Source: Thermosipho japonicus
GTDB taxonomy: Bacteria > Thermotogota > Thermotogae > Thermotogales > Fervidobacteriaceae
Length of the DNA: 64,000 nucleotides
NCBI RefSeq assembly: GCF_014201655.1
Contig: NZ_JACHEX010000001.1
Span: 248,001 to 312,000 of the forward strand
Direction: 5' to 3'
Position 1 is the first letter of the stretch, and each line of letters opens with the position of its first letter. The notes beneath the pieces were generated by a model. The model worked only from the letters and a program-made list of their open reading frames with translations, had not been told where the DNA came from and did not search any database. Position numbers and translations under genes: made by a program. Positions 55,222 to 58,652 of this stretch are shown one piece after another.

Positions 55222-55333
55222 TAACCCACGCCCCTTTCCCACAGCGGGCAAGCTCTTTATCTAAATTCCCGCTACCATTTTGTTTGAAACTATTTTGGCT
55301 ATTTGCGCTTTAAAATTAACAATTTGGCAACAA

Positions 55334-55360
55334 AAAAGGGACCTGTGATAGGTCCCTTTT
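55334..55360. terminator. Bidirectional terminator closing the cargo segment
   Basis: Arms AAAAGGGACC / GGTCCCTTTT with a 7-base loop lie 30 bases after the stop of the nuclease-like gene. They separate the cargo operon from the late phage genes. Confidence 0.9.
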
Positions 55361-55390
55361 AGTTAGCAATTGACAAATTTTTTAAGGATT

Positions 55391-56470
55391 TTATTCTACT
55401 TCTTCGTCTTCTAAATTTACATCGTATTTAAATAAAGGCAATTCATATTGTTTTCTATAATTGTATATTTCTGAGGAAAGATTTTTCTTAATTAATCTTT
55501 CCAAGGTTTTTCTAGTTCGTGATTTTAATAAATCTTTTTCTTTATTAACTTTGTAAACTTTTAATTTGAGATTTGAATCACCTATTTTCTCTTCACGAAC
55601 TTCATTTAAATCAGTTAAGTATTTATTTTTACACAATAACTTATCTACTACATATTGAAACAATTTAATTATCCTTTGAGGTTCATGTAATTTTGATATT
55701 ATCTCGTAATCTAAGTTATTTGATGTTTGCTTCAAGACATCTAAGACAGTAAATGATTCATCTTTCCAATGATTTCTTATAATATACCCCATTAACAGAG
55801 CGAGGAAAACACTGCAATTTATTCTTTCTAATTCATTTAATTCATTTATCTTCCTTTTGTAAACATTTTTATGAATATTATAAGTTCGAAAATCGAATAA
55901 ACATATATTCTTTTTTGATAATCGTTTTATGTTAGCTAAAAGTTCAAAATCTTTTCCTGCAATTTTTTCTATGCTTAAATATATATTTTCGGTTTTTATT
56001 TTTATTACGGAAAAATCAAATTTTATTTCTGGTAACAAATTACTTAGACTTTTTAGGATTTCATTAGCGAGATTTTCTCTGTTTTCAACAAATGATAAAG
56101 TTAAGCCTTTAAATGTGGCATTTTTTAAAATTTTTAAACCACTTCCAACAAGAGAATTATCATCAATGTTATTGTATGATAATATTTGCTCTCTTTTTAT
56201 TATATTGTCTACTTTGGAACTGTCTTTATATTCGAACATTATTAATTTATATTTATCGGAAGAATAATTATCTTTATATTTTATTACAGCATCAGGATTT
56301 ATTCTTTGCCGTTTGGCAGAGAATGAAACCTCATAACGAATATAAATATTTCCGTTTAAATAATTAGTTTTAAATTCTTTTTCAATTTTTTTAATTACAC
56401 TAAAAAAAATATTCATAGATTCGATATTTTCTAGATATTTAGTTTTTTCACATTCATCATGTTGTCCCAA
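55391..56470 (-). CDS. Unrecognised cargo protein with PD-(D/E)XK nuclease signature
   Basis: This 359-residue protein matches no family I know. Residues 59-60 (PD in INPDAVIKY), 80-82 (ExK in FEYKDSS) and Q95 (REQILSY) have the order and spacing of a PD-(D/E)XK nuclease core, with E47 in a preceding strand as a possible further ligand. The C-terminal 200 residues are helical and charged. The start is TTG 56470, 8 bases after GGAGG, 14 bases inside the preceding gene. It forms a two-gene operon with that gene, is AT-rich, and is followed by a strong terminator. Likely a DNA-cutting defence or exclusion factor, but this is inference. Confidence 0.7.
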   Translation of the reverse strand: MGQHDECEKTKYLENIESMNIFFSVIKKIEKEFKTNYLNGNIYIRYEVSFSAKRQRINPDAVIKYKDNYSSDKYKLIMFEYKDSSKVDNIIKREQILSYNNIDDNSLVGSGLKILKNATFKGLTLSFVENRENLANEILKSLSNLLPEIKFDFSVIKIKTENIYLSIEKIAGKDFELLANIKRLSKKNICLFDFRTYNIHKNVYKRKINELNELERINCSVFLALLMGYIIRNHWKDESFTVLDVLKQTSNNLDYEIISKLHEPQRIIKLFQYVVDKLLCKNKYLTDLNEVREEKIGDSNLKLKVYKVNKEKDLLKSRTRKTLERLIKKNLSSEIYNYRKQYELPLFKYDVNLEDEEVE

Positions 56471-57566
56471 TTTCTAGTTCCTCCAATTTATCAAGAATCT
56501 CTTCTTCTTTGATGTAAATTTTTATATTAGGATTAAATGATTTTCTTAGAAAATTTTCAATACGTTTGATTGAATTTGCACAACTTCCATTTAATAGAGT
56601 TATAAAAAGTCCGTAAGAATATAAATCTAAAACAAGATTACCACCAACGTGGAAATCAGCAGCAATTGTTTTGACATAATTTTTTCCCTTAAAAATGTCA
56701 AACGCCATAAGTTTTAATTCGTCGTTAGCCAAAATGGTTTTCATTGTTTTTTCCAACTTTTCGGGATCAATATTTTGGTTTGAAAACTCAATAAATACCA
56801 TTTCACGCCATTCTTGAAGTTTTTCAATTTTGATTAATTCATTTCCATAAGATGAGGTGATATTAAAAATTGTGTCCCTGACTATATCAAAATCATAACC
56901 ATAAAATGTGACTTTACCATTGTTATAAATATAAAGATAAACTACATCTTCATTATTATCATCAATTCTGAATTTACCTTTTACGAAATTCATGGGAATA
57001 CCATATTGTTTTAGTTCATTAGTTTTCTTGGCTAAATATGAAGGTGATTTTGAACTAAATGCAATATCAAAATTTTCTTCATCATCTAAAAGATCCGCAC
57101 TAAATTCACTTGATACTTCAATTCTATAAGCTTCATATTCATCAGCTATTTTGTTTACATTTAGCCATTGAAAATCAAAAAAAGAAGAAGAATTAACTAA
57201 TTTTTTAATAGCAGAATCACTTTCTTGTGATTGCGAAAAAGTAAAAACAGGAATAAATCTAAATCTTATATCACTATTTTCATAGAAAAGATAAGGATCA
57301 ACAAACAATTCCACTTTACCATCATTTATAATCAAAATCTCTTTGCTATTGTCAAAATGAATATCTGCTTTGTAGAATGTACGTTTTATTTCTTTTATAA
57401 TCAAATCAAACAGTTCATTTTCAGATAATCCGGGATAAGTTTCTAATATATATGATTTCGGAATTCCCGATTCATATTCTAATTTATGAATTTTTTTTCC
57501 ATGTATAGACTCTTCCATATACATATCAATAGTTTTATATAAATTTTCCCTGTTAGTAATTTTCAT
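56457..57566 (-). CDS. Unrecognised cargo protein, partner of the nuclease-like protein
   Basis: This 369-residue acidic protein has no recognised domain. It contains strand-rich stretches (KEILIINDGKVELFVDPYL; VVYLYIYNNGKVTFYGYD) suggesting repeated beta units, and a C-terminal helical region (SIKRIENFLRKSF). ATG 57566 follows AGAGGGTGAT. It is first in the operon and overlaps the nuclease-like gene by 14 bases, so both are made together. A sensor or specificity role is possible. Base composition is more AT-rich than the structural genes, which suggests separate origin. Confidence 0.65.
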   Translation of the reverse strand: MKITNRENLYKTIDMYMEESIHGKKIHKLEYESGIPKSYILETYPGLSENELFDLIIKEIKRTFYKADIHFDNSKEILIINDGKVELFVDPYLFYENSDIRFRFIPVFTFSQSQESDSAIKKLVNSSSFFDFQWLNVNKIADEYEAYRIEVSSEFSADLLDDEENFDIAFSSKSPSYLAKKTNELKQYGIPMNFVKGKFRIDDNNEDVVYLYIYNNGKVTFYGYDFDIVRDTIFNITSSYGNELIKIEKLQEWREMVFIEFSNQNIDPEKLEKTMKTILANDELKLMAFDIFKGKNYVKTIAADFHVGGNLVLDLYSYGLFITLLNGSCANSIKRIENFLRKSFNPNIKIYIKEEEILDKLEELEIGTT

Positions 57567-57583
57567 ACAAATCACCCTCTAAA

Positions 57584-57612
57584 AAATTATACCAAAAAAA
57601 TTTCAGATTTTA
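57584..57612 (-). promoter_or_regulatory. Promoter of the two-gene cargo operon
   Basis: A minus-strand TATAAT lies 18-24 bases before the start of the first cargo gene, with TTAAAA about 16 bases further upstream. This gives the operon its own transcription start, independent of early and late phage promoters. Confidence 0.6.
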
Positions 57613-57758
57613 ACATAAATTTATAAAGATAAAATTTGGTTTTCACCCAACTATAAAAAAGAGTAAACAATGCAGTTATTAAATTGCAAAAAAGACTTTT
57701 CGCCCCTTATAGTGCTTTTTTGTAATATGTAATATTCGAATATTTGTTTTATGTTAAT

Positions 57759-57787
57759 TTAACAATAGAGCATCTATATTGTATAAT
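57759..57787 (+). promoter_or_regulatory. Near-consensus promoter of the TAG-interrupted small gene
   Basis: TTAACA (57759-57764), 17 bases, TATAAT (57782-57787): five of six and six of six matches to sigma-A boxes. It lies 21 bases before the ATG at 57809. Such a promoter would be active in the lysogen without phage factors. Confidence 0.8.
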
Positions 57788-57808
57788 AATAAATTGGAGG
57801 TGATAAAA

Positions 57809-58080
57809 ATGTATAAAAAAACTGTAATTATTGTGATTTTATAGGTTCTGATAATAATCAAACCACTAATTGTAACACTTATTAACGGTAACAACATATT
57901 AAAAGATATCGAATGTGTTACAGCATAGGTTAGTGAACTCATTTCTACAACTGACATCATAGAGAACATCTATTCATAGATAGAAGAATTGTAGAAAATT
58001 ATATACCAACAAACAAAAAAAGAATTACTGCAACAATCTAAAAACAAACGTAAAAAGCGATTAATCAAAAAAAGGTCACC
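57809..58080 (+). pseudogene. Small membrane/coiled-coil gene interrupted by four in-frame TAG codons
   Basis: A near-consensus promoter, GGAGGTG 6 bases before ATG 57809, and a terminator at 58084-58106 frame a reading frame without TAA or TGA. It contains TAG at 57842, 57926, 57977 and 57992. If TAG is read as Gln, the product (about 90 residues) has a hydrophobic N-terminus (KKTVIIVIL, then VLIIIKPLIVTLI), a coiled coil (VSELIST...IEEL.KIIYQQ) and a basic tail (KNKRKKRLIKK). Four CAA codons are intact; no CAG is present. The frame runs into the terminator without a stop. TAG ends other genes in this phage, so the strict reading is an 11-residue peptide. Decayed gene or amber read-through are both open. 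Confidence 0.6.
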
Positions 58081-58083
58081 TCC

Positions 58084-58106
58084 CCCGGCTTTGCCCGGGT
58101 TTTTAT
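58084..58106 (+). terminator. Terminator of the TAG-interrupted gene
   Basis: CCCGG / CCGGG arms with a short loop are followed by TTTTTATT on the plus strand. It ends the short transcript from the promoter at 57759. Confidence 0.85.
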
Positions 58107-58107
58107 T

Positions 58108-58138
58108 CCAAAAAAACAAAACCGGGCCATGCCCGGCA
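58108..58138 (-). terminator. Terminator of the early phage operon
   Basis: CCGGGC / GCCCGG arms around CAT, followed on the minus strand by TTTTGTTTTTTT, lie about 35 bases after the stop of the regulator gene. It isolates the early operon from the cargo segment. Confidence 0.9.
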
Positions 58139-58172
58139 TTTTCGCATACTTATAGATTCTATGGAAATTATA

Positions 58173-58652
58173 TCATTTTTGTGGGGGTTTGTCAATATAA
58201 GACACTTTCTCAGCCAATTTTTCCACACCTTCTTGCACATATGTCCAAACTGTTTTTTCATTAAGATTCATCTTTTGTGCAATTTCCCTATATGACAATG
58301 TTTTATATTTTAGGCCTGAGCACTCTACAGAATTACAAAGTTCAAAATCGTGATTTATAATTCTCCAGAATATTGCTTCTCGTTGCCTTAATGGAAGCAA
58401 CTGAAGCCAATACTCAATCCGCCTGATTTTGTTCCACATTCTACGCTTCTTTTCTATCGTGAGTTCATCTAGAATTTCTGGAGAATGCATTGAATTTTTA
58501 TTAAATATTACTACTGCTCCATTTTTAAGTGTAAATTGTATAATAATTTCGCCATTTACAAAATCTAAATGAATTTTCCTTTTTAAAATTTCCTGCCAAT
58601 AACTTTTGTACCTTTGAAGTTCTTTAATGATATAATCCGAAGTAGAAACCAT
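58173..58652 (-). CDS. Sigma-region-4-like phage regulator (ArpU-like)
   Basis: In this 159-residue protein the C-terminal 70 residues form a sigma-70 region 4-like helix-turn-helix (LLPLRQREAIFWRI, then LSYREIAQKMNLNEKTVW). Position at the end of the early operon fits the late transcription regulators called ArpU-like in many firmicute phages. It probably turns on the late genes starting near 55,250. GGGGGG before ATG 58652 is the ribosome site. Confidence 0.78.
   Translation of the reverse strand: MVSTSDYIIKELQRYKSYWQEILKRKIHLDFVNGEIIIQFTLKNGAVVIFNKNSMHSPEILDELTIEKKRRMWNKIRRIEYWLQLLPLRQREAIFWRIINHDFELCNSVECSGLKYKTLSYREIAQKMNLNEKTVWTYVQEGVEKLAEKVSYIDKPPQK

What the first reader, a model, noticed from the sequence alone, without database searches (positions are those of the whole stretch)
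57759..58107. A strongly framed small gene whose only stops are four TAG codons
Seen: near-consensus promoter (TTAACA-17-TATAAT), GGAGGTG, ATG 57809, terminator at 58084-58106, and an open frame with no TAA or TGA but TAG at 57842, 57926, 57977 and 57992. Read with Gln at TAG, it is a membrane helix, coiled coil and basic tail. The four CAA codons are intact and CAG is absent. If stops came from random C-to-T decay of eight Gln codons, having all four at CAG has odds of 1 in 70. TAG is a normal stop in phage genes at 47918 and 51671, so global recoding is excluded. Options: amber suppression by a tRNA outside the window, a regulated read-through gene, selective decay, or an RNA. The frame also reaches the terminator without a stop (a non-stop message).
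Basis: partly seen in the sequence, partly recalled or inferred. Interest (0 to 1): 0.8.

Follow-up and report, generated by a model that had tools for sequence, protein, structure and literature searches.

The report
Amber-broken small gene, self-locking mRNA
A tiny gene in a heat-loving bacterium's dormant virus looks like a membrane-peptide gene broken by ordinary stop codons, not one read with an altered genetic code; its predicted RNA folds so that its two ends lock together and hide the ribosome's landing site, as in the RNAs of some small bacterial toxins.

Summary
The sequence observation is right: promoter, GGAGGTGA, ATG 57809, four in-frame TAGs, no TAA/TGA, terminator at 58084. Reading TAG as an amino acid is not supported: the host (Thermotogae, Thermosipho inferred) has RF1 and 46 tRNAs, none reading UAG; TAG ends 10 of 59 window genes; no relative exists in 103 genomes of the class, IMG/VR or phage records. 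The '1 in 70' argument fails: coding-like signal stops at the fourth TAG (57992), so the four CAAs lie in an A-rich 3' tail.

Two things look real. The frame keeps a membrane-helix signal across the first TAG (p about 5e-4, post hoc), so codon 12 was probably once sense. And the Shine-Dalgarno GGAGGTGA (57796) has a perfect complement, TCACCTCC (58076), abutting the terminator: predicted to close the RNA end to end even at 70 C, and unique among 383 strong starts in 1.1 Mb (partly redundant). Such locking is known from type I toxin mRNAs (aapA, hok). The unit lies in a variable cargo slot behind a conserved phage promoter; relatives carry toxin-antitoxin-like or NYN genes there, or nothing. 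Best reading: a decayed, type-I-toxin-like small membrane-peptide gene. No antisense antitoxin promoter was found, so membership is not claimed.

The parts
57759..57787 (+). promoter TTAACA-17-TATAAT of the small unit
   Evidence: 11 of 12 consensus matches
57796..57803 (+). Shine-Dalgarno GGAGGTGA, 5' arm of the end-to-end pairing
   Evidence: sequence; one of two GGAGGTGA in 64 kb on this strand; paired in MFE and centroid
57809..57844 (+). 11-codon ORF as read by the standard code, MYKKTVIIVIL, ended by TAG 57842
   Evidence: translation
57821..57880 (+). codons 5-24: in-frame hydrophobic (T at codon position 2) stretch running across TAG 57842, predicted membrane helix if codon 12 were sense
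   Evidence: 15 of 20 codons with T at position 2; dinucleotide shuffles 0.00055 for any frame; post-TAG part alone 0.0003 in frame
57809..57994 (+). extent of coding-like phase: codons 1-62, with TAG at codons 12, 40, 57 and the last TAG (57992) as the likeliest original stop
   Evidence: frame 0 beats the other frames by 14 log units for codons 1-62, not for 63-92
58076..58083 (+). anti-Shine-Dalgarno TCACCTCC, 3' arm, directly abutting the terminator stem
   Evidence: perfect 8-bp complement (I16); pairing probability 1.00 at 37 C, 0.97 at 70 C; unique combination in 1.1 Mb
58084..58106 (+). intrinsic terminator of the unit
58109..58200 (-). conserved phage promoter (TTGACA-17-TATAAT) and immediate terminator at the right edge of the cargo slot
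   Evidence: conserved in six related phages
55285..58110 (.). variable cargo segment: this unit plus the two-gene cassette 55391-57575 (-)
   Evidence: comparison with L126 (empty), L124, L125, L160, L045

Best explanation
A small independent transcription unit, inserted as cargo in a Thermosipho prophage behind a conserved phage promoter, that once encoded a short (about 39- or 61-residue) N-terminal membrane peptide and is now broken by amber codons, the first at codon 12. Its roughly 310-nt transcript is predicted to be locked: the 3' anti-Shine-Dalgarno at the foot of the terminator pairs with the 5' Shine-Dalgarno, so the full-length mRNA would be poorly translated, as in hok and aapA toxin mRNAs. 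Shown by sequence: promoter, SD, ATG, TAGs, complement, terminator, cargo slot. Inferred: transcription, locking in the cell, toxin-like ancestry, loss of the peptide.
For: Hydrophobic in-frame phase continues across TAG 57842; coding-like phase in codons 1-62 only; the SD/aSD pair dominates the predicted fold at 37-75 C; TCACCTCC arises in 0.08% of shuffles, any 8-nt complement of the 5' end in the last 60 nt in 1.4%; it is the only strong SD of 57 in the sampled genome with its complement within 400 nt and the only one of 383 with the complement abutting a terminator in 1.1 Mb, some of it redundant. RBS occlusion by a 5'-3' long-distance interaction is described for type I toxin mRNAs (PMC6733600). 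The slot holds other cargo in relatives, SocA/Panacea, MqsA-like and NYN genes, or nothing. RF1 and standard tRNAs make TAG a stop.
Against: Three or four ambers with no TAA, TGA or frameshift is odd for neutral decay: chance 0.6-36% for three, 0-1.6% for four, depending on the assumed ancestral codons and mutation bias. No homologue exists to show an intact gene. No antisense antitoxin promoter stands out from chance. Overall folding of the transcript is only at about the 10th percentile of genome background. The tests on the helix and the SD complement were chosen after seeing the sequence.
Confidence: 0.48

Rival explanations
1. A structured regulatory RNA: the end-locked transcript is the product, its UCACCUCC mimics the 3' end of 16S rRNA and could act on Shine-Dalgarno sequences; the reading frame is a by-product.
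For: SD/aSD closure and terminator; two internal perfect 8-9 bp hairpins (I11, I17); hairpin block z about -3.1.
Against: In-frame membrane-helix phase and good SD-ATG spacing; whole-RNA stability at the 10th percentile of background; no Rfam match in the unit; no homologue for covariation.
Confidence: 0.24
2. The 11-residue hydrophobic peptide MYKKTVIIVIL is itself the product (leader or mini-toxin), its translation held back by the end-to-end pairing.
For: Promoter, SD and ATG are intact.
Against: Shorter than any type I toxin known to me (memory: about 18-60 residues); the hydrophobic phase goes on beyond the stop; no relatives.
Confidence: 0.1
3. Chance: an AT-rich non-coding cargo remnant in which promoter, SD, open frame and complement are coincidences.
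For: Similar TAA-only and TGA-only non-coding frames occur in the same genome; the frame runs on past the terminator to 58262.
Against: Joint rarity of an 11/12 promoter, an 8-nt SD at the right spacing and an aSD abutting a terminator.
Confidence: 0.13
4. The TAGs are read as glutamine (or another residue) by suppression or programmed read-through, giving a 97-residue-or-longer membrane/coiled-coil protein.
For: Only TAG, never TAA/TGA, breaks the frame; every TAG is followed by a purine.
Against: No CTA-anticodon tRNA in host or prophage; RF1 present; TAG is a normal stop in phage and host genes; four ambers in series; no in-frame stop before the terminator; no coding signal after codon 62; no relative.
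Confidence: 0.05

Closest known systems
aapA/IsoA and hok/sok type I toxin mRNAs
   Same: Short membrane-peptide reading frame near the 5' end, strong SD, 3' anti-SD closing the full-length mRNA by a long-distance interaction (PMC6733600).
   Different: Reading frame broken by TAG at codon 12; no antisense RNA promoter or overlapping antitoxin found; no sequence relationship found; in a thermophile prophage.
Code-15 (TAG to Gln) crAss-like and other gut phages
   Same: Frame interrupted by TAG only.
   Different: Those phages have many TAG-containing genes or suppressor tRNAs (PMC10607447, PMC9523058, PMC10879173, abstracts); here one unit, no suppressor tRNA, TAG stops elsewhere, RF1 present.
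Phage morons (independently promoted cargo genes)
   Same: Own promoter and terminator, opposite strand to late genes, in a slot with different cargo in related phages.
   Different: Product broken, or not a protein.

Membership tests
Type I toxin-antitoxin system | small hydrophobic peptide ORF with strong SD | tested here: inconclusive
   helix phase across the TAG is significant but standard translation gives 11 residues
Type I toxin-antitoxin system | SD occluded in the full-length toxin mRNA | tested here: met
   P(SD paired with aSD) 0.97-1.00 at 37-70 C; prediction only
Type I toxin-antitoxin system | antisense RNA antitoxin from the opposite strand | tested here: inconclusive
   only 9-of-12 minus-strand promoter matches inside the unit, near chance; the strong minus promoter 58195-58167 is a conserved phage promoter present without this unit
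Type I toxin-antitoxin system | peptide is toxic and the RNA antitoxin protects | not testable with these tools
   needs expression
TAG-recoded gene (code 15) | suppressor tRNA with anticodon CTA | tested here: not met
TAG-recoded gene (code 15) | TAG avoided as stop in the phage | tested here: not met
   TAG ends 10 of 59 window genes, among them phage genes at 47918 and 51671
TAG-recoded gene (code 15) | homologues with sense codons at the TAG sites | tested here: not met
   no homologue
Phage moron | own promoter and terminator, sporadic presence at one site among relatives | tested here: met

The most novel reading that the evidence does not exclude
An RNA or mini-mRNA from a thermophile's phage whose ends lock through an SD / anti-SD helix stable at about 70 C: either a working type I toxin unit of Thermotogae with an amber-limited peptide, or a regulatory RNA mimicking the tail of 16S rRNA.
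Probability: 0.15. Interest if true: 0.65.

Novelty: new variant of a known kind. Interest (0 to 1): 0.36.

Why it matters
It removes a striking claim of codon reassignment outside the known recoded phages and replaces it with a testable one: that end-to-end locking of a small mRNA, known from hok and aapA, also occurs in thermophiles, at growth temperatures where most RNA structure melts. It also marks a cargo slot in Thermosipho-type phages that repeatedly captures toxin-antitoxin-like genes.

Tried and rejected
Homology searches of the TAG=Q protein and of the DNA in 60 relatives, 103 genomes of the class, IMG/VR, genome contigs, phages, plasmids (DNA only), Pfam, PHROGs, NCBIfam, PADLOC and PDB sequences: nothing but itself. 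The IMG/VR hit is the same sequence, 100% over 10.3 kb. A minus-strand 32-residue ORF with GGAGGTGA and a TTG start (about 58066-57970) was considered as a rival gene; its SD is the mirror of the + strand aSD and no promoter of its own was found, so it was set aside. Link to the neighbouring two-gene cassette: the only relative of its first gene, in another family (L106), has no such divergent small unit. Global RNA stability as evidence for an RNA gene was dropped after the genome background check. A first scan for SD/aSD/terminator combinations missed the target itself through too strict matching and was replaced.

Full report
Where it is. The window lies in a 1.92 Mb genome. A genome of the same genus held as G003 is one contig of 1,915,238 bases; that this is T. 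melanesiensis, and so that the genus is Thermosipho, is my inference from memory of that genome's length. A published survey reports prophages in this genus (PMC6211235). Genes around 37-63 kb on the minus strand are a prophage with a terminase gene.

Check of the observation. All stated elements are present. A fixed frame of this stretch lacks TAA and TGA in 0.1% of shuffles, but in 504 kb of this genome non-coding SD-led frames broken only by TAA (two) or only by TGA (two) also occur. The eight-glutamine argument needs codons 63-92 to be coding; they show no coding phase, while codons 1-62 do. The codon-usage score over 92 codons is the best of six frames but below the 5th percentile of real gene pieces.

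TAG as sense. All 46 tRNA genes of the host were read, with both Gln tRNAs (TTG, CTG) and no CTA anticodon; a loose pattern search for CTA tRNAs gave fewer matches than its control. The window, the next 40 kb and related phage stretches have none. RF1 is present. TAG ends 10 of 59 genes of the window and 75 of 469 in the sample. Cumulative read-through of four ambers without a suppressor would be negligible (general knowledge).

What the frame says. Codons 5-24 have T at position 2 in 15 of 20, the mark of a membrane helix; shuffles reach this in any frame 0.055% of the time, and the part after the first TAG alone gives 0.03-0.07%. So codon 12 was probably sense. These tests were chosen after seeing the sequence. 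Nothing requires the lost residue to have been glutamine; several sense codons lie one change from TAG.

What the RNA says. The SD GGAGGTGA at 57796 and TCACCTCC at 58076-58083 pair in the minimum-energy and centroid folds, with probability 0.97 at 70 C in the model, the helix standing directly on the terminator stem. Of 57 starts with an 8-nt SD in the sample only this one has its complement within 400 nt; of 383 such starts in 1.1 Mb of held sequence (partly redundant) only this one has it abutting a terminator. The overall fold is less exceptional: z -3.3 by the tool, -3.15 without the terminator, but a genome background puts it at about the 10th percentile. RBS occlusion by 5'-3' pairing is described as a feature of certain type I toxin mRNAs (PMC6733600).

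Where it sits. Six related phages share a near-identical promoter followed within about 30 nt by a terminator, at the end of or shortly after a sigma-region-4-like regulator. In five of them, all but G003, a conserved element follows later, before the late genes. Between the two lies nothing (L126), SocA/MqsA-like genes (L124), a SocA-like gene with a partner (L125, L160), or, in G003, an NYN gene on the opposite strand. In the window the slot holds this unit and two unknown genes. It is a cargo slot, and this unit runs opposite to the late genes.

Mechanism and verdict. Most likely the unit is a decayed small membrane-peptide gene whose mRNA is built like a locked type I toxin mRNA. The exclusive use of TAG among its breaks remains mildly unexplained. 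No antisense promoter beyond chance was found, so it is not filed as a type I system. Read-through is kept at 5%.

Noticed in passing
window 58652-58109 (-); L124:6001-6550, L125:308-862, L126:6001-6528, L045:7380-8760, L160:4905-5000: Layout like lambda Q-pR'-tR': a sigma-region-4-like regulator followed by a strong promoter and an immediate terminator, conserved in six phages; suggests late-gene control by antitermination, with the cargo slot just behind it.
   Followed up: partly
window 55276-55224 (-); L124:8060-8118, L125:2317-2376, L126:6585-6649, L160:6451-6520: Highly conserved non-coding element GGTAGCGGGnATTTAGAnAAAGAGCTTGCCCGCTGTGGGAAnGGGG upstream of the first late gene, no Rfam match; candidate antitermination or leader RNA.
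   Followed up: partly
L045:6738-6790 (+), L125:2206-2260, L160:6345-6400: Hairpin element TGCCGGTGTCCACTCCTTGGGGTTCCGTCCACCAAGGGAAAGTGCACCGGC with a paired G-C to A-T change between phages, beside cargo genes; no Rfam match; unknown.
   Followed up: partly
window 55391-57575 (-); L106:3675-5762: Two-gene cassette of unknown function; the first protein has a 27% relative in another family, followed there by a second gene without detectable similarity and a serine recombinase. Possibly a defence or toxin-antitoxin pair.
   Followed up: partly
window 58066-57970 (-): Minus-strand GGAGGTGACC with a TTG-started 32-residue hydrophobic ORF, mirror of the + strand anti-SD.
   Followed up: partly
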